Positions 8,447-18,676 of a stretch of DNA of 64,000 bases are shown one piece after another (within the stretch, counting starts at the first letter, position 1; each line of letters begins with the position of its first letter). The stretch is from Halarchaeum grantii (GTDB lineage Archaea; Halobacteriota; Halobacteria; Halobacteriales; Halobacteriaceae). The stretch spans positions 1-64,000 of the forward strand of contig NZ_BMPF01000003.1 in NCBI RefSeq assembly GCF_014647455.2. Direction: 5' to 3'. The notes beneath the pieces were generated by a model, which was not told the DNA's origin, ran no database searches, and was given only the letters and a program-made list of their open reading frames with translations. The position numbers and the translations under genes are program-made.

Positions 8447-8889
8447 GCAGCGGTGACGAGACGCCCGACCTCGACATGAGTGATGGCGCGCCAGTCGATT
8501 TCGAACGGCTCTCGCTCATCGCTACGCGTCTCGGCAACGATGCCCGCTTCGTTCGGATCGACGAGTCGCCGCCGACTGCACCAGACCGACTCGTCTGTGT
8601 GTTCGACCCTGCGCTCTATCCGGTGAGTGTCGAGGAAGCACGCCTCGACATCGCCTGGTTCCAGAACGAGACGTTCTCTATTCACTACCACGAGAGCCAT
8701 GCCGAGAGCGAGTTCGACCATCGCTGGGATCGGCATCCCTCGACACACAACGTGCTCGATCACATTCATCCAGGACCGGACGCGCCGACGCCGGGAGAGG
8801 ATGCTCACCATCCCGATGACTGGCGGGATGTGCTCACAACCGTGCTGAACGAAATCGAGGACCGCCAGCGCGGCTTCTGGACCGACTAG
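8443..8889 (+). CDS. RWDRHP-motif protein of two-gene module, copy 1
   Basis: The 148-residue protein carries a central beta-rich part (VSVEEARLDIAWFQNETFSIHYHES) followed by HRWDRHPSTHNVLDHIHPGP. The motif RWDRHPx(n)HxHxxP is shared with the second genes of the modules at 37256 and 41951. The Asp/His clustering after a short strand resembles the DUF6516/TumE toxin layout, but this is only a resemblance. Overlap of 4 nt with the winged-helix gene and strict pairing in three copies suggest a toxin-antitoxin-like role. Confidence 0.62.
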   Translation: MSSGDETPDLDMSDGAPVDFERLSLIATRLGNDARFVRIDESPPTAPDRLVCVFDPALYPVSVEEARLDIAWFQNETFSIHYHESHAESEFDHRWDRHPSTHNVLDHIHPGPDAPTPGEDAHHPDDWRDVLTTVLNEIEDRQRGFWTD

Positions 8890-8934
8890 CCACCGTCGCA
8901 CTCTCAGTTCACAGCGTCCACCATCGGGCCGTCT

Positions 8935-9052
8935 TCCTCACCCATTTGGTGAATCGCCTCGAGGTGACCAGTCGCGGCCGTTCGCTGGGGAGTACGACAT
9001 CGCACTCCTCTCCGGTGGCACGGACACGGGGCAGGAGCGAGTGGCCGTCGTC
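8935..9052 (-). repeat. Remnant of dispersed sequence family A, copy 1
   Basis: Read on the minus strand this stretch gives SLLPRVRATGEECDVVLP and SERPRLVTS, matching the decayed copies at 33.8, 35.8, 39.4 and 43.4 kb. It is joined in frame to the epimerase fragment upstream of it (minus strand), marking a recombination junction near 9055. Confidence 0.55.
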
Positions 9053-9054
9053 GA

Positions 9055-9300
9055 GCGCCACCTGTGGTTCGAAGCCGAGTTGCTCCCGCGCCTTCGAGAT
9101 GTCCGCGATGCTCTCCTCGATGTCGCCGTCGCGGGCGTCCGTGTGGACGATCTCTGACTCGGTGTCTGCGGCGTCGCGCATCGTCTCCGCGAGCGCGCGA
9201 ATGCTCACCGAGCTCCCCGTCCCGGTATTGAACGCCTCGCCCGTGTAGTCGGTCGTCGCCGCGCGGAGGGTCGCCTGCACGACGTTGTCGTCGATCGACA
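9055..9300 (-). pseudogene. C-terminal fragment of a sugar-nucleotide epimerase
   Basis: The minus strand reads GEAFNTGTGSSVSIRALA, then KAREQLGFEPQVALDDG. These are the NxGTG substrate-loop region and the LGFxPxVxLxxG end of extended short-chain dehydrogenases such as UDP-glucose 4-epimerase. The Rossmann half is absent, and the end is fused to repeat family A. Intact relatives lie at 15243 and 25450. Confidence 0.7.
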
Positions 9301-9717
9301 GTGCTGGATGGGGCCCGGTGTCGCCAGTATTCCTCTGTCGACGACTCCGCGTAGTCGGTGCCGACCACGACATAGCCCGCTGTCGCCTTCCCCCGAGAGA
9401 TGCCGTGGCGACACCGCGTTTCATCTATCTAGTGAGGATTGAGCGAGGATCGAACTGGAGGGACACACACCGCGTTTCATCTGCCCTCATGCCGGTCGTG
9501 AGCCGCCCGTTCGAGATGGCTACGGTTTCCGCCTCTAGAGCCATCCGGTGTCGCTAGTACGGACCTGAAGTATCAAGCAGTTACGCCATCCAATTCGAAC
9601 GCTGTCGCCGTCGACGGGTCGCCGTCGACGGGTCGACTTCGAAGACTCGGCGCCGCGCCGGTTCGAGGTCAGTGTAAATGGGTTATCTCACTCGTACGTT
9701 TGAAGCCCCTGAGGACC
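9301..9717. other. Intergenic stretch before the origin repeats
   Basis: No gene is supported. Small repeats are visible: CACCGCGTTTCATCT occurs at about 9412 and 9468, and GTCGCCGTCGACGG is present twice in tandem near 9606. These look like recombination scars rather than functional sites. Confidence 0.4.
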
Positions 9718-10015: not shown

Positions 10016-11200
10016 CTGAGCGATTTCTCGTTTACCCCAAACAACTCTATCTTCAAGAATCGGGAGGCACTGCTTGAAGAGTGGACACCAGACAATCTCG
10101 TCGGGCGTGACGAAGAGCTCAGCCGATATCACGCAGCTCTCCAGCCGGTCATCAACAACGAGACTCCCTCGAACATCTTCCTCTACGGGAAGAGCGGAGT
10201 GGGAAAGACAGCGGCCACACGCTACCTTCTCCACACGCTCGAAGGAGACGCGACCAACGTGGAAGGACTTGAGCTCACGACGATCGAGGTCAACTGTGAT
10301 GGGCTGAACACGTCCTATCAGGTAGGGGTGAAACTGGTCAACGAACTCCGGGAGCCGGGACGCCAAATCTCGAACACGGGGTATCCACAGGCGAGTGTCT
10401 ATGAGTTCCTCTTCGACGAACTCGACGCTTGCGGGGGAACAGTACTTATCGTCCTCGACGAAGTCGATCACATCGACGACGACTCACTGCTTTACAAATT
10501 GTCGCGTGCTCGCTCGAACGGCGATATTCGTGATGCGAAACTGGGTGTCATCGGGATCTCGAACGATTTGGACTTCCGGAATCAACTCTCCTCGAAGGTC
10601 CGATCATCGCTCTGTGAAAAGGAGGTCTCCTTCAGTGCGTACGATGCCGATGAACTCCGGCTCGTGCTCGAACAACGCGAACGGGTCGCCTTTCACGACG
10701 GTGTTCTCGAGGACGGCGTTGTCGCGATGTGTGCGGCCTACGGTGCAAAGGACTCTGGTGACGCACGAAAGGCACTGGATCTCCTTCTAGAAGCTGGTGA
10801 CGTCGCTCGCGAGAGTGGATCGGCCGTCGTGACCGAAGCACACGTGCAGAAGGCTCGTGAACGCGTTCAGACGAACCAGGTTGTTGAGGGCATCCAAAAC
10901 TACTCCCAACACGGAAAGCTCGTTCTGTACGCACTGACGGTGCTCCACGAGCGCGGTGAGACACCGGTACGAACACGGGAAGTCGTCGACATGTATCGGG
11001 AGGTCGCTCACTCTGAGGGCATAAGCCCAGTCTCGGAGCGCTCAGTACGTGACTATCTCGAGGAGTTGGCGCAGTTGGGAATCGCGAGCTCAGTAGAGTA
11101 CAATCAGGGGAAAAGCGGTGGAAAGTACAAGGAACATCGGTTGGAGCAGTCCGTTTCCGCCGTCCGGACCGGCCTGTCGACGTTGTTAGAATCCGCTTGA
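10016..11200 (+). CDS. cdc6: Orc1/Cdc6 replication initiator (plasmid type)
   Basis: The protein has an AAA+ ATPase: Walker A GKSGVGKT (residues 58-65 from the CTG start), Walker B VLDEVD (146-151), sensor 1 GISND (180-184), sensor 2 GDARKALDLL (from 248), then a C-terminal winged helix. It would bind the flanking repeats and load the helicase. The frame is open from 9950, but no ATG, GTG or TTG precedes Walker A. CTG 10016 gives LSDFSFTPNNSIFKNREALL, the N-terminus expected for the family, so CTG initiation is inferred. The alternative is a frameshift from ATG 9981, which lies in another frame and stops at 10019. Confidence 0.85.
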   Translation: MSDFSFTPNNSIFKNREALLEEWTPDNLVGRDEELSRYHAALQPVINNETPSNIFLYGKSGVGKTAATRYLLHTLEGDATNVEGLELTTIEVNCDGLNTSYQVGVKLVNELREPGRQISNTGYPQASVYEFLFDELDACGGTVLIVLDEVDHIDDDSLLYKLSRARSNGDIRDAKLGVIGISNDLDFRNQLSSKVRSSLCEKEVSFSAYDADELRLVLEQRERVAFHDGVLEDGVVAMCAAYGAKDSGDARKALDLLLEAGDVARESGSAVVTEAHVQKARERVQTNQVVEGIQNYSQHGKLVLYALTVLHERGETPVRTREVVDMYREVAHSEGISPVSERSVRDYLEELAQLGIASSVEYNQGKSGGKYKEHRLEQSVSAVRTGLSTLLESA

Positions 11201-11236
11201 ACCGAGGCTCGGTCGTTCTGGTGGTATCCGCTCCGT

Positions 11237-11262
11237 ACTAACAGCGGAAGCGGTGGGGTGGG
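11237..11262 (+). repeat. ORB-like repeat 6, downstream of the initiator gene
   Basis: Plus strand ACTAACAGCGGAAGCGGTGG followed by GGTGGG. Having a copy on the far side of the gene, as well as the cluster before it, supports a repeat set bound by this initiator. Confidence 0.65.
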
Positions 11263-11392
11263 TGTGTCGCGTTTCTCGACGACAGTCTCGCACCGGGGCC
11301 TTCTCCCCCTGACGATTCGCCCTTCGCGACGGCGCGAACGATGCCCGTCGGTGTCACCCGAACACCACCCACCCACCCAGCAGTGCGGCCAC

Positions 11393-12154
11393 CTACCACT
11401 CGCCATCGACGGCCGCCCGATACGCGTCCAGTGCATCCGTGGCAATCCGGTCCCAATAAACATCCCCGCGCGCATCACCGGGTCGCTCGGTGGCCGCTCA
11501 CCAGCCAGCGCCCGCTCCAGGACGCCCGCCACACCGTCGACCGTCGGCGTCGCGAGGAACCCACCCTCCCCGATCACTTCATCCGCCGCCGACTCCGGAT
11601 GCTCGGCGCCGATCACCGTACACCCCGCCGCCATCGCCTCCGCATACGTCAACCCGAACCCCTCTCTCGTGGATGGCGACGCGAACACCTCGGCCGCACG
11701 CATCTGCGCCACGACGTCCGCGTACTCCTCGAGGAACCCCGTGAACGTGATTCGGCCCGCGCTATCGAGCCCTCGCGCATGCGCTTCGAGCGCCTCGCGC
11801 ATCGGCCCATCCCCGACGATACCGAGCGTTTCGTCCGTCGACGCCCGGTCGAAGGCATCGAGGAGGACGTCCACGCGCTTGTCCTCGATCAACCGCCCTG
11901 CAAAGAGCACGTCGAAGCCGTCGCTCGCGGGCGTCGTCTCCCGGATCTGCTCGTAGTCGATGCCGTTCGGCACGACGCGAATCCGGTCCCGATCGGGCCC
12001 GATTTCTGCGAGCCGCCCCGCCGTCAGCTCCGACACCGCAATCGGATGCTGGGGCACGCGCCGTCGCGTGCTCCACCACCTTTCCGAACGGCGCCAGATA
12101 CCCCAGATAGTCCTCCCAGTAGTCCCGCCACACCTCGTGCCAAGTCGTGACCAG
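11393..12154 (-). pseudogene. Decayed GT4-family glycosyltransferase
   Basis: The minus strand encodes most of a family 4 glycosyltransferase in three frames. TTWHEVWRDYWEDYLG sits in one frame. A second frame has AVSELTAGRLAEIG, VVPNGIDYEQ, VLFAGRLIEDKRVDVLL, LGIVGDGPM and the donor-site EX7E motif EGFGLTYAE. The end, VYWDRIATDALDAYRAAV, is in a third frame before TAG 11395-11393. The N-terminal third is missing. It is clearly related to the intact gene at 16189, which has WYEVWDDYWYDYLG at the same place. Confidence 0.82.
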
Positions 12155-12202
12155 CTTTCTTGTGATAGTTCGATCGTCTTTATTTGAACTCTGTCTCTCT
12201 GT

Positions 12203-13090
12203 TCACTCGCTCTCGATCGGGCACACCCGGATCTCACCGAACCCATACTTCGAATGCGCGCCGACACGTCTGATCGCGTTCTTCGCTGTCACGACCGGCC
12301 GGTCACCCCCATACCGGACGACTTGTCCATGGTCAACTGTCCCGCAGTGATACGTCTCCGGGCCTTCGACTATCTCCTCCTCACGCTGTCGAAGGTGAGT
12401 CGTCTCAACCGTCCACCACCACGGAATGTCGACATCGTTCGTGCCCGGGTAGTCCGAACGCAGGACGAACGGCGTCACGAGCTCCAGCCGGTATGCGTCC
12501 GCACCGCGAAGCCGACCATAGCCGAGGGCATCGAGGTCAACCATCTGTGTCGCTTTCAGTCGCGTCGTTCCATACCCGTAGTTTCGCTGCCCACCGAACT
12601 GCAATCCATCGAGTGCCTCCTCTTCGATCGGCAGGACGTCCGGGTCGTCCGCGTGGAGGTACGCGTGAACGAACCACGACGTCGTCCACGTCGTTTTTCT
12701 GGATTCTGCCGATCGGCCGAAGACCATCTCGTGCGCGAACGCTGGCTGTCCCGACTGCGTTCGAATATCGTGCGTGTTCACCGCATCCCGCGGCCGGGAA
12801 TCGAGCACCCACGGTTGCTCCGGATGACGATGCAACCAGAGATCGTCGTACGTGGTCACTTCCGGAAGCGTTGCGCCGAGAGCGGGCCGCGACCCGCTTA
12901 GTGAATGCCACTCGGGGAAGGCGCCGAACTGCCCGGGCGCAAACATCCCGTGGCTCGCGTGGATCCGAGTGCGTTGGTCGGCAGGGAGTACTTGCTTGAG
13001 CGCGTGATAGATCGCGTTCCCCGAGACGTAGTACGGGTGCCCGAGATAGTCCATCTCCAGACGCCAACACACCTGCTGAATCCACGTCAC
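12203..13090 (-). CDS. Diverged Cas5-like RAMP protein (HRAMP-type system)
   Basis: The 295-residue protein carries two glycine-rich loops of the RAMP superfamily: LQFGGQRNYGYGTTRL (163-178) and, at the C-terminus, VGAHSKYGFGEIRV (276-289), the usual G-rich end of Cas5/Cas6-like ferredoxin folds. The start is GTG 13090, which overlaps the upstream stop as GTGA. It is last in a four-gene minus-strand operon with a Cas7-like protein but no CRISPR array. In known systems Cas5 holds the 5' end of a guide RNA; here that is inference. I call it HRAMP-like from memory of the predicted haloarchaeal system with diverged Cas5 and Cas7. Confidence 0.62.
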   Translation of the reverse strand: MTWIQQVCWRLEMDYLGHPYYVSGNAIYHALKQVLPADQRTRIHASHGMFAPGQFGAFPEWHSLSGSRPALGATLPEVTTYDDLWLHRHPEQPWVLDSRPRDAVNTHDIRTQSGQPAFAHEMVFGRSAESRKTTWTTSWFVHAYLHADDPDVLPIEEEALDGLQFGGQRNYGYGTTRLKATQMVDLDALGYGRLRGADAYRLELVTPFVLRSDYPGTNDVDIPWWWTVETTHLRQREEEIVEGPETYHCGTVDHGQVVRYGGDRPVVTAKNAIRRVGAHSKYGFGEIRVCPIESE

Positions 13091-13809
13091 GCCGACCACC
13101 TCTCGAAGTCCTCGACGTACTGGAGCGCCGTCGACCAGCTCTGGATCCGTCTGAGGTTCGCGTCGAGCACCATCGCCCACGCGTCGTCGTCCGTACCGAG
13201 TGGGTGCTCGGGCAGTCGACTCCACGCCCCCGCCCACGACCGAGACGGAGTGTCACCGAGGCGAATGCGTGGCCGCTTAGGCGACTCGGGTGTGATCCGG
13301 AGCGCGAACTCGTCGCCCGCGAACACTGTCCGATGGGGGACCACACTCTCCGGTGGATCGACGACGAGCCGGAGGTCTGCGAACGTCGAGCCCTCCTCAT
13401 AGGCCCTCACCAGCGCTGCGACGAGCAGGGTGTGATACTTCAGACTCGTGTATGGGTAGTACACCGACTCGTTGAACCATCCCGCGACGTCGCTCGCGAG
13501 CCACTGCTCGTGCGCGCGCTCGGCGTCGCGCTCCGTTACGAGACCGTGCATGGCGTCGTCAACGTTGACCCCGTCGAGGTTCTGGGTTGTACCAGTACAG
13601 AGCGAGAGTCGTCGGTGGTTCGTGTGCGTCTCGACCGTGGTGTCCGGTTCGCCCACGGGTCGACTGAGCGCCGCCGCGTCGCCGTCCGCGCCAAAGGGAA
13701 CGCGTTCGTTCACCCGGACACCCGCATACGTCTCAGAAGCCTGTGCGTGGCTCTGCCTGACGAACTTGTGGGCGTCATGGCGATACACCGCGAGCATGTC
13801 GCCGCTCAT
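13087..13809 (-). CDS. Uncharacterised conserved component of the HRAMP-type operon
   Basis: The 240-residue protein begins MSGDMLAVYRHDAHKFVRQS and overlaps both neighbours by 4 nt (ATGA at its start, GTGA at its end). It has no recognised nuclease, zinc or glycine-loop motif. Segments such as WFNESVYYPYTSLKYHTLLVAALVR look like a helical core followed by strands (RLVVDPPESVVPHRTVFAGDEFALRITP, split here over several elements). The predicted HRAMP systems contain one uncharacterised conserved protein besides Cas5 and Cas7, and this gene fits that place. It could act as a small or large subunit. Confidence 0.6.
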   Translation of the reverse strand: MSGDMLAVYRHDAHKFVRQSHAQASETYAGVRVNERVPFGADGDAAALSRPVGEPDTTVETHTNHRRLSLCTGTTQNLDGVNVDDAMHGLVTERDAERAHEQWLASDVAGWFNESVYYPYTSLKYHTLLVAALVRAYEEGSTFADLRLVVDPPESVVPHRTVFAGDEFALRITPESPKRPRIRLGDTPSRSWAGAWSRLPEHPLGTDDDAWAMVLDANLRRIQSWSTALQYVEDFERWSA

Positions 13810-14653
13810 ACCGCCTCCACGCGCTCGTTCAGGACGGCCTCGAACTCCGGGCAGTACTCGGACGCCCACTCCTCGTCCTTCTCCGCCATCGCCTTCGTGG
13901 GCTTCTTTCCTCTATCGAAGACGCGTCGCAGTTCGCACTCATCGTAGAGCGGATTCACGAGCTCACAGTCGACGATCCCGCCGCCGAAGTTCCGGGAGCC
14001 ACCAAGTTGGTGCATGAAGTCCGTCTGGTGGTCGTTGAGGAACTCGATGGCCTCTGTGAGGAGCGCGAGGAACTCGGGCTTCGACTCGCGAAACGTGAGC
14101 TGCCACGACCCGTCCAGATTCGCGATCGCGTCTACCTCCACGTTCCGCAACGGATCGCGGTGGCTCTCGCGAGCGCGCGAGACGACGTTCCGATTCACTC
14201 GCCGATAGTGGCCCTCGGCTTGTCCGCGTGTATAGTCGACGCTCGACCGGACAGGCGAGAACGTGATCGGACGTCGCATTACTTTGCCCGGCCGATTCCC
14301 GAACCCACCGAAGAGCTCAAACACCACACAGCCGTCGTCGTGGTCGTCGAGACAACTCCCCTTCTCGTGATAGCCCGCATCGAGGTCGGTCTCGTAGACG
14401 TCCTTCTTCCGGAACCCTGCGTTCGCCTCCCCGGATGGCAGGCAGTACCGCCGCGCTCCTGAACAACGCGCTCCATCCCGTGGCGAAGCCACCCAGAGAG
14501 TGAGAACGCGGGGATGATCCCGCCGATCTGGTTCTGTGGGTCCTCCGGCTCGTAGTTGCCGCTCGAGGCGTGATGTCGATCCGTCACGACCGAGTCCCCG
14601 ATCACGAGGAGGTCCGCGCGAAGTCGCACGTACACGTCGCGGAACTCGGTCAT
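13806..14653 (-). pseudogene. Diverged Cas7-like RAMP protein, with one frameshift
   Basis: The start (ATG 14653, overlapping the zinc-finger stop as ATGA) gives MTEFRDVYVRLRADLLVIGD, then IGGIIPAFSLSGWLRHGMER, the RAMP-type 'IPxxSLxGxLR' motif. At about 14450 the coding frame shifts by one missing base; the second frame continues YCLPSGEANAGFRKKD, FELFGGFGNRPG and, near the end, HQLGGSRNFGGGIVD, a Cas7-type glycine-rich loop. With the base restored it would be about 282 residues. Cas7 proteins form the guide-RNA filament. Whether the shift is real, recoded or an assembly error cannot be told here. Confidence 0.65.
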
Positions 14654-14808
14654 CGCCGCCTCCGCTTGAGGAACGTGCGGCAGTCGTGGTCCGCGATCCG
14701 CTCCGGGAGGCCGACCGCCCCACAGACGGGGCACTCCTCGAGTTGTGGGCCTAACTGGTCGTCGCGCTGTTCGACAGACTCATGCCGCTCTCTGTCTGAA
14801 TGGTTCAT
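14650..14808 (-). CDS. 52-residue zinc-finger protein, first gene of HRAMP-type operon
   Basis: A short gene starting at ATG 14808 encodes an acidic N-terminus and a compact zinc site CPVC (26-29) followed by H41 and C43 (ADHDC), then a basic tail KRRRR. The TGA overlaps the ATG of the Cas7-like gene. It fits a C2HC knuckle that binds nucleic acid or protein. Its coupling to the RAMP genes suggests it belongs to the complex. Confidence 0.65.
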   Translation of the reverse strand: MNHSDRERHESVEQRDDQLGPQLEECPVCGAVGLPERIADHDCRTFLKRRRR

Positions 14809-14984
14809 GCTTCGTCCTCTGGCGAAGCCCGGGGATTCGGTGTACCAGCACCGGCCCCACTTCTGAGGCGACCCGTGCTTCTCACTCTCCAGTTCGTCGA
14901 GGGTTGGCTTAGGTGTTACGATGTAACTTCTAATGAAACTAGACGGTTCCGAACCGGTAAGTGACCGATCGGAGTAATGGGAGC

Positions 14985-15221
14985 ATGGTCAACGAGGAGT
15001 TCCGGCCCAACGAACGCCAAGAGGCGATCCTACGCGTCCTCAAAGAAGGACGCGACGAAGGACGACCGTGGGGCTACGGGAACCCAAAGAGATTCGAAGA
15101 AGAATTGGGGATTCGACGGCAGTACGTGAACCGGGCGCTACGTGGGCTCGTCGACGCCGGGTGGGTTGAGAAAGCGAATCGTGGACTGTATCGGTTCGTC
15201 GTTGACCCGCGAGAAGAATGA
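14985..15221 (+). CDS. Small winged-helix DNA-binding protein
   Basis: The 78-residue protein is a single winged helix: helices NERQEAILRVLKEGRDEG and FEEELGIRRQYVNRALRGL, then a wing (AGWVEKANRGLYRFV). GTG 14961 is an alternative start. It is divergent from the HRAMP-type operon across a short region that includes GGTGTTACGATGTAACTTC (near 14911-14929, a GTTAC/GTAAC inverted repeat), so it may control that operon. Confidence 0.68.
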   Translation: MVNEEFRPNERQEAILRVLKEGRDEGRPWGYGNPKRFEEELGIRRQYVNRALRGLVDAGWVEKANRGLYRFVVDPREE

Positions 15222-15242: not shown

Positions 15243-16175
15243 TTAGATATCTTCCTCAGCCAGGACCTTCGCGAGTCCTTCCCGAAGCTCGTACGTCGGC
15301 TCCCAGTCAAATTCGCCCGTCAAGCGCGTGATGTCCGCCTTGAGATGGGGGCGATCACTTTCACGAACACGTTCTTCGTCTTGCTCGATGGTGATTTCCT
15401 CGCCTAACGCGTCTCTGACGGCCTCAACAACTTCACGAACAGAGTGCTCCGTTCCGGTGCCAACGTTATATGCACGGTATTCTCCATTGAACTCACTGGC
15501 GAGCGTGATGAGCGCACTCGCGATATCGCTCGCATAGATGAAGTCACGGGCAGGAGACAGATTCCCGAGATCAACGCTTCGAGAACCACCTTCGAGCTGT
15601 TCCAGAATTGCCGGAATGAGGTGACTGTTCGTCTCGCGCGTTCCGTAGACGTTGAAGAGCCGCGCGGACGCCGTGGGAACACCTGTATCGGCGTTGAATA
15701 ATCGTGCTTCGTCTTCCGCAACGAGTTTCGTCCGGCCGTAGATATCCATTGGCCCGATCCCTTCCGTCTCGACGTGTGGACCAGGATCCGGAGCGTAGAC
15801 TGCGGCTGAGGACGTGTTAACAACCCTCTTCAGGCCGTCAAGACCACGCGCTGCCTCTAAGACATTTCGAGTCCCCATTACGTTCACGTCGAACGCATCT
15901 TCGGGGTTCTCGTTGCAGTACGGAATGAAGTGGATCGCCGCGAGGTGAATTAGGACATCTGGCGAGACCTCTTCGACGACATCCACTACTTCATCTAACT
16001 CTCGGATATCCGCTTGATGAACCGTAACATCATCGGGGACGAGGCTCTCGTCGCCAGTAAACCCATTGTCGAGTGCATGAACGATAGATCCCTCATTGAG
16101 CAGCTGACGCGTTACGTACGACCCGATGAATCCAGTTCCCCCCGTGACGAGGACTCGTTCTTCTTCAAGCGACAT
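15243..16175 (-). CDS. NAD-dependent epimerase/dehydratase (extended SDR)
   Basis: A full-length 310-residue extended short-chain dehydrogenase. The NAD-binding motif is TGGTGFIGS (11-19), the catalytic pair is Y146 and K150 (IYGRTK) with S122/S123, and the C-terminal sugar-nucleotide domain has ARDFIYASDIA and NVGTGTEHSV. Such enzymes epimerise or dehydrate UDP-, GDP- or dTDP-sugars; the exact substrate cannot be read. It is 13 bases downstream of the glycosyltransferase at 16189, so the two probably share a transcript for surface-glycan synthesis. Confidence 0.88.
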   Translation of the reverse strand: MSLEEERVLVTGGTGFIGSYVTRQLLNEGSIVHALDNGFTGDESLVPDDVTVHQADIRELDEVVDVVEEVSPDVLIHLAAIHFIPYCNENPEDAFDVNVMGTRNVLEAARGLDGLKRVVNTSSAAVYAPDPGPHVETEGIGPMDIYGRTKLVAEDEARLFNADTGVPTASARLFNVYGTRETNSHLIPAILEQLEGGSRSVDLGNLSPARDFIYASDIASALITLASEFNGEYRAYNVGTGTEHSVREVVEAVRDALGEEITIEQDEERVRESDRPHLKADITRLTGEFDWEPTYELREGLAKVLAEEDI

Positions 16176-16188
16176 TCGATTACCTCTC

Positions 16189-17352
16189 TTAATTCAACGT
16201 ATTTAGATATACTTCTTCAAGCTCAGTTACGATATTGCTCCAGTCATGTGCCTGTCCGTACTCCCGGGCCCCATCTGACAATTGCTCCTGAAGATTGGGG
16301 TCTGCCAGTATCTCTTCCACTCGATCGGCGATTGCTTCGGGAGTTGGGTCTACTACGAATCCAGTCACGCCATCGTCGACGACAGCGGTCGATCCGTTCT
16401 CCGGGTGGTCTACGACGATGCTCGGAACGCCGCATGCGTTCGACTCCAAGATCGTATTGGGGAATCCCTCACGGATCGACGGAAGGACGAACATCTTCGC
16501 GGCCTTGATATTCGCGATCACGTCCTCATCGGCCTCGACGAATCCGAGGAACTCGACTTGATCGTCAACACCGTAATCACGGGCTTGCCGTTCCAGGTCG
16601 TCACGCTCTGGTCCATCCCCAACTATACAAACGTTTAGATCGGACCCGCGTCGAGAAGAGATGATATCGACAGCCTGCAAAAGGTGCTCAACGCGCTTGT
16701 GTTCCGAGAGTCGCCCGACATACACGATATCCCAGTCCGCGTCTGCGGCTGGAATCTCTTGAAGTGCATCGTAGTCGACACCGTTCTCGACGACGTGGAC
16801 GTTCTCTGTTTTTCCGAGTTTGGCTAAGTCGTCTGCGATGTAGTCTGAGATTGGAATCACCGTATTCCCGAGCTTTAGTGTTGCGCGCTCGACGGCTTTC
16901 CCTCCCAGTCCTACTGGTCCGAGGTAGTCGTACCAGTAGTCATCCCACACCTCATACCACGTCACGACGAGTTCCGACTGCCGAACTAATTCATGTGCCT
17001 TCGACGTGAACACGGGGAAGTACGGGAATTGCTGGCAGTCGACGACATCGAGGTTCTCACGAAGCAGTGGCTTCGTCAATGCGGCTGCAAACTTAATTGC
17101 TTGCGCTATTGATCGCCGACCGTCTGTATAGAGTTCGTAGGGCTCGCAAACCCCGTGATAGACTATCCCATCCTTCTTCATCCGATCAGGTCCTTCCCAA
17201 TACTTCATCCCAAACAGGTGGACCTCGTGGTCTTCTGCTAGCCGTGTCGCGAGCTCACGAATTCGTTTCTGGGCACCTCCTTTCTCCCACGGATAGACTG
17301 CATCGTATACGAAACCGATACGGAGTGAGCTAACCGAGTACTTCGAGCACAT
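16189..17352 (-). CDS. GT4-family glycosyltransferase
   Basis: The 387-residue protein has the two Rossmann-like domains of GT-B enzymes. The N-terminal acceptor domain begins RIGFVYDAVYPWEKGGAQKR, with the glycine-rich GGAQ loop. The C-terminal donor domain has IVYVGRLSEHKRVEHLL, VCIVGDGPERD and the EX7E motif E295-E303 (EGFPNTILE). It would transfer a sugar from a nucleotide or lipid donor during surface-glycan assembly at the cytoplasmic membrane face. It is 13 bases upstream of the epimerase gene. ATG 17352 is the chosen start; ATG-free upstream sequence is AT-rich promoter. Confidence 0.9.
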   Translation of the reverse strand: MCSKYSVSSLRIGFVYDAVYPWEKGGAQKRIRELATRLAEDHEVHLFGMKYWEGPDRMKKDGIVYHGVCEPYELYTDGRRSIAQAIKFAAALTKPLLRENLDVVDCQQFPYFPVFTSKAHELVRQSELVVTWYEVWDDYWYDYLGPVGLGGKAVERATLKLGNTVIPISDYIADDLAKLGKTENVHVVENGVDYDALQEIPAADADWDIVYVGRLSEHKRVEHLLQAVDIISSRRGSDLNVCIVGDGPERDDLERQARDYGVDDQVEFLGFVEADEDVIANIKAAKMFVLPSIREGFPNTILESNACGVPSIVVDHPENGSTAVVDDGVTGFVVDPTPEAIADRVEEILADPNLQEQLSDGAREYGQAHDWSNIVTELEEVYLNTLN

Positions 17353-17530
17353 TTATGGCAATTCTCAATTAAATACTCAAATAGCCATCTATTTTAAACT
17401 ATGGCATCCCACTTTCGTGATATTCTGATGAAGTATATCTGATCTATCGTCCTTAATGATTCAACTATATAACAATGGGTTTACAATCTTGTCTATGTTC
17501 TTAGAAAGTACCACGAACTCGATTGAGACT

Positions 17531-18676
17531 ATGAAAATCATCCAGACACCAGCACGTTTTCCACCATCAGTTGGTGGCGTCGAACAGTATACCTATATCC
17601 TCTCGAAAAAGCTTGTCGAGCGTGGACACGAGGTCACCGTCGTCTGTGCCAAAGAACCAGAAGACGCCCTTTCACGGGAAATCTACGAGGGTATCGACGT
17701 CGTTCGACTTGACTACACGGGGAAGATTGCCCAAACGAACCTCACTCAGCGACTTCCCGTCGAACTGTATCGCGAGATTCGCGACGCCGATATCGTACAC
17801 ACACACCTTCCGACACCGTGGACTGCCGACGTGAGTGTTGCCATCGCGAAGATCTGTGGGACTCCCTCCGTTATAACGTACCACAACGACATTCGAGGCG
17901 ACGGAATCGCGTCACACGTCGCCAACATCTACAACAAGACTGTCATGCAGGCGACGCTCGCGTGGACTGACCGGATCATCACAACCCAGGAGTCGTACTT
18001 CGAGAACTCCAACATCCCCGAGCGGCTTGAGGACAAGACTGTGACGATACGGAACGGGGTCGACGTTGAGCGGTTCCAGCCGCAGGACGTTGACGACGAC
18101 ACTGCGAGAGAACTTGGATTCGACACGGAGAAGACGAACCTGTTCTTCCTCAGCGTCCTTGACGAATATCACGACTACAAAGGGCTAGAGAATCTTCTTG
18201 AAGCGATGCAGCACCTTCCCGACAAGTACCACCTCGTAGTCGGTGGTGATGGATCCAAACGTGGCTACTACGAACAAAAAGTAACTGATCTTGGAGTTGG
18301 TGGTCAGGTTACGTTTGCGGGGTACATTCCTGATGAGACGCTTCCCCGGTATTATAACGTGGCGGATATGTTCGTTCTCCCGTCTACATCTAGTGAGCAG
18401 GAAGGGTTTGGCTTGGTTGCACTGGAAGCGCTTTCATGTGGGACACCAGTAATTACGACTGATATTGTCGGGGTTTCATCGGAGATCAAAACTCAGGACG
18501 TCGGGAAAATCATTCCACCAGACGACGTTTCTTCGCTCACTAGTGCGATCACAGCCGTTTCAATGAGCCCTAAAGGCTCTATAGAAAAACGTGGGAGACA
18601 CATCTGTGTCTCGTCATACTCTTGGCAAACTATTGCTGACGATTTACTAGACCTATTTAATGAGGTCCGCAGCTAA
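17531..18676 (+). CDS. GT4-family glycosyltransferase
   Basis: The 381-residue GT-B enzyme starts at ATG 17531 (MKIIQTPARFPPSVGGVEQY), where the GGVEQY loop is typical of the family. Donor-domain signatures are VTIRNGVDVERF, VVGGDGSKRG and EGFGLVALE (E291 to E299). An upstream in-frame ATG at 17456 would add 25 residues without homology-like character. Divergent from the glycosyltransferase at 16189 across an AT-rich promoter region. Probably adds a sugar in surface-glycan synthesis. Confidence 0.9.
   Translation: MKIIQTPARFPPSVGGVEQYTYILSKKLVERGHEVTVVCAKEPEDALSREIYEGIDVVRLDYTGKIAQTNLTQRLPVELYREIRDADIVHTHLPTPWTADVSVAIAKICGTPSVITYHNDIRGDGIASHVANIYNKTVMQATLAWTDRIITTQESYFENSNIPERLEDKTVTIRNGVDVERFQPQDVDDDTARELGFDTEKTNLFFLSVLDEYHDYKGLENLLEAMQHLPDKYHLVVGGDGSKRGYYEQKVTDLGVGGQVTFAGYIPDETLPRYYNVADMFVLPSTSSEQEGFGLVALEALSCGTPVITTDIVGVSSEIKTQDVGKIIPPDDVSSLTSAITAVSMSPKGSIEKRGRHICVSSYSWQTIADDLLDLFNEVRS

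What the first reader, a model, noticed from the sequence alone, without database searches (positions are those of the whole stretch)
12203..14808. Array-less RAMP operon (HRAMP-type): diverged Cas7, Cas5, an unknown protein and a zinc knuckle
Four minus-strand genes overlap by exactly 4 nt (ATGA, ATGA, GTGA). Two products carry glycine-rich RAMP loops (VGAHSKYGFGEIRV at a C-terminus; HQLGGSRNFGGG). No CRISPR array, cas1/cas2, Cas6, Cas8 or Cas10 is visible. This fits my memory of a predicted haloarchaeal derived class 1 system that pairs diverged Cas5 and Cas7 with an unknown protein and varied nucleases. No nuclease gene is adjacent here, which differs; candidates in the same window are the DUF4365 and BglII-like proteins.
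Basis: partly seen in the sequence, partly recalled or inferred. Interest (0 to 1): 0.82.

Follow-up and report, generated by a model that had tools for sequence, protein, structure and literature searches.

The report
Nuclease-less array-less Cas5-Cas7 operon (HRAMP)
A salt-loving archaeon carries a CRISPR-derived operon that has Cas5 and Cas7 proteins but no CRISPR array; it belongs to a widespread branch that lacks the DNA-cutting partner genes of its known relatives, sits behind an undescribed folded RNA, and in this genome its cas7 gene is broken by one missing base.

Summary
Cas5 matches Cmr3 (21 of 21 relatives) and Cas7 matches Csm3 (15 of 17). The middle protein is conserved and unassigned. 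The genome has no detectable Cas1 and the locus has no array.

New here: 105 operons from Halobacteria form two sister clades. Clade B is textbook HRAMP: an RNase H-fold protein in 45/51 and HNH in 44/51. Clade A, which includes the window, has none of the RNase H-fold protein and no HNH of its own (0/54 each). A and B co-occur only as chance predicts. So "no nuclease adjacent" is a property of the clade. In five clade-A loci a TnpB-derived RuvC protein overlaps the cas7 start.

Both clades sit behind a divergent winged-helix gene and a covarying three-way-junction RNA (42/54 A, 50/51 B). It is absent from Rfam and also precedes unrelated accessory operons, so it is probably a regulatory leader and not a guide.

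Verdict: a new variant of a known kind. The 2019 HRAMP paper was not readable here, so prior description of clade A cannot be excluded.

The parts
12203..13090 (-). cas5 (Cmr3-like RAMP), GTG start, 295 aa; start overlaps the unk stop by GTGA
   Evidence: all 21 aligned relatives match PADLOC Cmr3, best E 5.9e-9; 66 of 67 near-invariant clade-A residues kept
13087..13809 (-). unk: conserved HRAMP protein of unknown family, 240 aa; confident fold prediction (pLDDT 89); best PDB hits are nearly all Csm1/Cas10 but not significant
13806..14653 (-). cas7 (Csm3-like RAMP), broken by a -1 frameshift
   Evidence: 15 of 17 relatives match Csm3, best E 7.7e-5; PF03787 in 9 of 17 below cut-off
14429..14432 (-). 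G run that is one G short compared with all intact relatives: site of the cas7 frameshift
14650..14808 (-). 52-aa zinc-knuckle-like first gene of the operon (CPVC...H..C); a 69% identical homologue precedes cas7 in L005 (Halobacterium sp. KA-4)
14806..14883 (-). structured leader RNA ending at the first AUG: P1 14881-14872/14833-14824, P2 14869-14864/14859-14854, P3 14853-14849/14842-14838, competing hairpin P4 14828-14823/14814-14809
   Evidence: model R1 hit 63.8 bits, E 3.6e-12 (the window was in the training set); same architecture in 53 of 54 sequences; 0 of 100 shuffles; no Rfam match
14985..15221 (+). divergently transcribed small winged-helix regulator (MarR/TrmB-like HTH), conserved partner of HRAMP operons

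Best explanation
This is a member of a nuclease-less sister clade ('clade A') of the haloarchaeal array-less HRAMP systems. Shown: the three core genes, their type III-like Cas5 and Cas7 relationship, sister-clade status, absence of the HNH/RNase H-fold partners of clade B, the divergent wHTH gene, and the structured leader RNA. Inferred: Cas7 (Csm3-like) polymerises on an RNA with Cas5 (Cmr3-like) as the cap, and the unknown protein takes the large-subunit place. Without a dedicated nuclease, clade A acts by binding target nucleic acid, by intrinsic Csm3-type RNA cleavage, or with an exchangeable partner encoded between leader and cas7 (a TnpB-derived RuvC protein in five loci). Expression is switched by the wHTH regulator and by the leader, whose stem P1 competes with hairpin P4 next to the first start codon. 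In the window genome the system is probably off, because cas7 is frameshifted.
For: Cas5 is Cmr3-like and Cas7 is Csm3-like, with H, C, C, LFG and LGG-G motifs collinear with Csm3 (inspection). The Cas7+Unk+Cas5 tree splits exactly into clades A and B, with supports 0.957 and 1.0; the RNase H-fold gene is in 0/54 vs 45/51, and HNH in 1/54 (the one is L024, next to a clade-B operon) vs 44/51. Pfam assigns HNH and RNase_H_2. A and B share genomes no more than by chance (8 seen, 6.1 expected), and the window genome has no homologue of the clade-B nucleases. Clade-A proteins are highly conserved (mean identity 80/70/71%), so the nuclease-less form is maintained. The mini-TnpB stop overlaps the cas7 start in five loci. 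The leader is in 42/54 A and 50/51 B, with both-sided compensatory changes.
Against: No structure of Cas7 could be obtained (model failed, pLDDT 34), and profile-profile comparison with archaeal Csm3 was not above shuffled controls. The Cas10 resemblance of the unknown protein is not significant (best E 0.45) and has no sequence support. No guide RNA, activity or defence phenotype is known. The RuvC partner occurs in only 5 to 7 of 54 loci.
Confidence: 0.6

Rival explanations
1. Clade A is ordinary HRAMP whose nucleases are encoded elsewhere and act in trans.
For: Some type III systems borrow Cas6 from other loci; 8 genomes carry both clades.
Against: Co-occurrence is at chance level; the window genome has no homologue of the clade-B nucleases (single-genome nulls without a positive control).
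Confidence: 0.2
2. In the window genome the operon is a decaying remnant without function; only relatives are active.
For: cas7 frameshift; three near-invariant Cas7 residues changed of 73; remains of clade-A operons are common in other genomes.
Against: The lesion is one base in a G run, as sequencing errors often are; unk and cas5 are intact and keep 49/50 and 66/67 near-invariant residues; the leader still folds.
Confidence: 0.45
3. The conserved leader RNA is the guide or scaffold RNA of the HRAMP complex.
For: Present at nearly all HRAMP operons of both clades, which have no array.
Against: Found in 57 of 97 Halobacteria genomes, many without HRAMP, in front of unrelated genes with the same divergent wHTH; it abuts the start codon.
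Confidence: 0.07
4. The glycine-rich proteins are not RAMPs and the operon belongs to an unrelated pathway.
For: Sequence similarity outside the motifs is weak; no structure of Cas7.
Against: All Cas5 members hit Cmr3 and 15 of 17 Cas7 members hit Csm3 among 5027 models; clade B carries HNH and RNase H-fold genes as published for HRAMP.
Confidence: 0.04

Closest known systems
HRAMP (haloarchaeal RAMP; Makarova et al. 2019, doi 10.1093/femsle/fnz079; described in PMC8730458 and PMC12669027)
   Same: Haloarchaeal, diverged type III-like Cas5 and Cas7 plus a conserved unknown protein, no array.
   Different: The published system carries additional nucleases, typically HNH or PD-(D/E)xK (PMC12669027). 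Clade A, including the window, has none of these next to it. The leader RNA and wHTH are not mentioned in the HRAMP passages of the two papers that could be read.
Type III CRISPR-Cas (Csm/Cmr)
   Same: Cas5 resembles Cmr3 and Cas7 resembles Csm3.
   Different: No Cas10, Cas6, Cas1/2 or array at the locus; sequences highly diverged.
ARAMP (Asgard archaea; PMC8730458)
   Same: Array-less RAMP derivative.
   Different: Most ARAMPs carry a Cas1; no Cas1 here.
TnpB / Cas12f
   Same: The clade-A partner in L019, L089, L093, L100 and L105 has RuvC motifs and the TNB zinc domain (PF07282, E 4.4e-10).
   Different: Only 197-220 aa, without the N-terminal guide-binding part; translationally coupled to cas7. 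Absent from the window.

Membership tests
HRAMP | Diverged Cas7 homologue | tested here: met
   15 of 17 relatives match Csm3, best E 7.7e-5; window copy frameshifted
HRAMP | Diverged Cas5 homologue | tested here: met
   21 of 21 match Cmr3
HRAMP | Conserved uncharacterised protein in the operon | tested here: met
   50-70% mean identity within and between clades. Identity with the protein of the 2019 paper could not be checked (paper not held)
HRAMP | No CRISPR array or adaptation module | tested here: met
   no repeat array near the locus, no Cas1 in the genome (control rings in Haloferax volcanii)
HRAMP | Haloarchaeal | tested here: met
   nearly all named relatives are haloarchaea; L029 is labelled Elusimicrobia MAG, probably mis-binned
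HRAMP | Associated nuclease (HNH, PD-(D/E)xK or other) | tested here: not met
   none in the window operon; own HNH 0/54 and RNase H-fold 0/54 in clade A; five loci have a TnpB-derived RuvC protein
HRAMP | Complex formation and function | not testable with these tools
   needs biochemistry
Type III CRISPR-Cas | Cas10 large subunit | tested here: inconclusive
   no Cas10-size gene at the locus; unknown protein's model hits Csm1/Cas10 without significance; no whole-genome Cas10 search was made
ARAMP | Cas1 homologue | tested here: not met

The most novel reading that the evidence does not exclude
Haloarchaea use one undescribed switch module, a divergent winged-helix gene plus a structured leader RNA with a start-codon-proximal competing hairpin, to control array-less CRISPR-derived operons and other accessory or defence-like operons. 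Within it, clade-A HRAMP has dropped its own nucleases and in some lineages has taken up a translationally coupled RuvC domain from TnpB.
Probability: 0.35. Interest if true: 0.8.

Novelty: new variant of a known kind. Interest (0 to 1): 0.6.

Why it matters
HRAMP is an open question: a CRISPR-like complex without an array whose guide and action are unknown. The split into a nuclease-bearing and a nuclease-less clade gives a natural experiment on what the nucleases do. Intact clade-A operons in laboratory haloarchaea (Halobacterium salinarum DSM 3754, L007; Haloferax sulfurifontis, L009) make it testable now. The leader RNA, absent from Rfam yet present in over half of sampled Halobacteria genomes, would be a new regulatory RNA class in organisms whose mRNAs are mostly leaderless (the last point is from general knowledge).

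Tried and rejected
PDB profile searches gave no significant hit for Cas7 or Unk and only a weak Csm4 motif hit for Cas5. hhalign of HRAMP Cas7 with archaeal Csm3 was no better than shuffles (24 of 100 as good); Cas5 against Csm4 was (0 of 100) (the script crashed before the Unk test). Unk against the viral fold library: nothing. DUF4365 as nuclease partner: rejected, no conserved link. Leader RNA as HRAMP guide: considered and mostly rejected. The Cas6 family search was uninformative because its control does not ring in Haloferax; the RAMP family PF03787 likewise misses even this locus. The HRAMP and ARAMP papers themselves are not held. The candidate catalytic aspartate of Cas7 (DDP motif, conserved in both clades) could not be placed without a structure.

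Full report
OBSERVATION. The minus-strand operon is present with the stated overlaps: a 52-aa zinc-knuckle-like gene (14808-14650), cas7 (from 14653), an unknown gene (13809-13087) and cas5 (GTG 13090 to 12203). One point was missed. cas7 changes frame near 14430. In every intact relative the two pieces are one 287-aa frame that joins exactly at this point, and the DNA shows one G missing from a run at 14432-14429. The gene is therefore broken, or the assembly is wrong at a homopolymer. The window's unk and cas5 keep 49/50 and 66/67 near-invariant residues; the two cas7 pieces keep 70/73.

IDENTITY. All 21 Cas5 relatives match Cmr3 models (best E 5.9e-9). Fifteen of 17 Cas7 relatives match Csm3 models (best E 7.7e-5), and 9 of 17 match Pfam RAMPs below its cut-off. 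Cas7 also keeps, in the Csm3 order, a His, two Cys, an LFG motif and the C-terminal LGG-RNFG-G loop (by inspection), although the profile-profile score itself is not significant. The unknown protein has no family match. Its predicted fold is good (pLDDT 89) and its best PDB matches are almost all Csm1/Cas10, but with E 0.45 or worse this is only a lead. The Cas7 model failed. The genome has no Cas1 and no array lies near the locus.

TWO CLADES. A Cas7 profile finds 107 of 391 Halobacteria genomes in 47 of 86 genera. From fetched regions 105 operons were compared. A tree of the concatenated Cas7, Unk and Cas5 proteins (93 operons with all three in one piece) divides exactly into clade A (window type) and clade B (supports 0.957 and 1.0). 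Cas7 is about 80% identical within A, 76% within B and 56% between them. Clade B is HRAMP as described in PMC8730458 and PMC12669027. Its order is wHTH, zinc protein (45/51), Cas7, Unk, Cas5, an RNase H-fold protein (PF13482, 45/51) and an HNH protein (PF01844, 44/51), with an alternative downstream protein in 6/51 that I read by eye as PD-(D/E)xK-like (no Pfam match). Clade A has 0/54 of the RNase H-fold gene and no HNH of its own; the single HNH counted in clade A belongs to the clade-B operon next door in L024. A and B share a genome in 8 cases against 6.1 expected, and the window genome has neither nuclease, so supply in trans is not indicated. High conservation inside clade A argues that the nuclease-less form works. 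The window's own operon was not in the tree, because its cas7 is broken; it is placed in clade A by its Cas5 and Unk identities (55-66% to clade A, 46-52% to clade-B members).

CARGO SLOT. Between the wHTH gene and cas7, clade-A loci carry variable small genes. In five loci (L019, L089, L093, L100, L105) the last of these is a 197-220-aa protein with RuvC motifs and the TNB zinc domain of TnpB/Cas12f (PF07282 E 4.4e-10), and its stop overlaps the cas7 start in all five. Degraded versions are in L023 and L026. The window has only the zinc-knuckle gene in this slot; a 69% identical homologue stands in the same place in L005.

LEADER RNA. Directly before the first AUG lies a conserved RNA: closing stem P1, hairpins P2 and P3, and a hairpin P4 that re-uses the 3' arm of P1 and ends at the AUG. 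In the window it is 14883-14806. A custom parser found the architecture in 53 of 54 sequences with several pair types at most P2 and P3 positions, and no shuffled sequence reached the observed score. In clade B an independent alignment shows both-sided changes at P1 (11, 8 and 7 sequences) and P3 (6, 3 and 2). Model hits cover 42 of 54 clade-A operons and 50 of 51 clade-B operons; the sequences used to build the models are among them. Rfam has no such family. The RNA is not restricted to HRAMP. It is in 26 of 59 relatives with model R1 and 57 of 97 Halobacteria with model R2, usually with the same divergent wHTH about 100 nt upstream (23 of 30), and in front of SWIM zinc-finger genes, a lone HRAMP-type HNH gene, restriction-modification neighbourhoods and other small accessory genes (these labels are partly by eye). 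The simplest reading is a cis-acting leader that exposes or hides the start codon, together with a transcriptional regulator. A guide role is unlikely.

MECHANISM. Shown: genes, relationships, absence of nucleases, leader structure. Inferred from type III biology: a Cas7 filament capped by Cas5 on a guide of unknown origin, with Unk in the large-subunit place. The effect without nucleases would come from binding, from Csm3-like RNA cleavage (an Asp in the DDP motif is conserved in both clades, but not placed structurally), or from exchangeable partners such as the RuvC protein. In the window genome the system is probably inactive.

NOVELTY. HRAMP is known. The nuclease-less sister clade, its TnpB-derived partner and the shared leader RNA were not found in any paper that could be read. 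The original HRAMP paper is not in the library, so earlier description of clade A cannot be excluded.

Noticed in passing
window 14806-14883 (-); L007 6584-6664; L119 10133-10232; L286 (G000:C9 9126-9224): Structured leader RNA plus divergent wHTH is a general haloarchaeal module, multi-copy in some genomes and absent from Rfam; a probable second copy is elsewhere in the window's own genome.
   Followed up: partly
L019, L089, L093, L100, L105 (degraded in L023, L026): TnpB-derived RuvC + TNB protein of about 200 aa whose stop overlaps the cas7 start of clade-A HRAMP.
   Followed up: partly
L171 about 8490-9395 (G007:C1): A strongly diverged Cas7-like protein encoded directly upstream of AddAB/RecB-like helicase-nuclease genes, behind a small wHTH gene.
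   Followed up: no
window 10199-11200; L005, L014, L098, L103, L104, L108, L116: Cdc6/Orc1 genes lie near 10 of 54 clade-A operons but 2 of 51 clade-B operons, hinting at plasmid or origin-linked mobility; the window copy starts at the Walker A motif and looks N-terminally truncated.
   Followed up: partly
window 11104-12267 and 15243-18676: The operon sits among glycosyltransferase and epimerase genes; the stretch just downstream of cas5 encodes a glycosyltransferase remnant.
   Followed up: no
L007, L024, L030, L081, L102: Cargo genes of the slot begin with a TAT-like signal (MQRRQFLAAAAAL; PF10518, below cut-off) and recur in a leader locus of a genome without HRAMP (L181).
   Followed up: no
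L029 (PWEK01000060.1): A contig labelled Elusimicrobia MAG carries a clade-A HRAMP operon; probably a mis-binned haloarchaeal contig.
   Followed up: no
L277 (G043): Leader, wHTH, zinc protein, small linker and a PD-(D/E)xK-like gene in HRAMP order but with the Cas genes missing.
   Followed up: no
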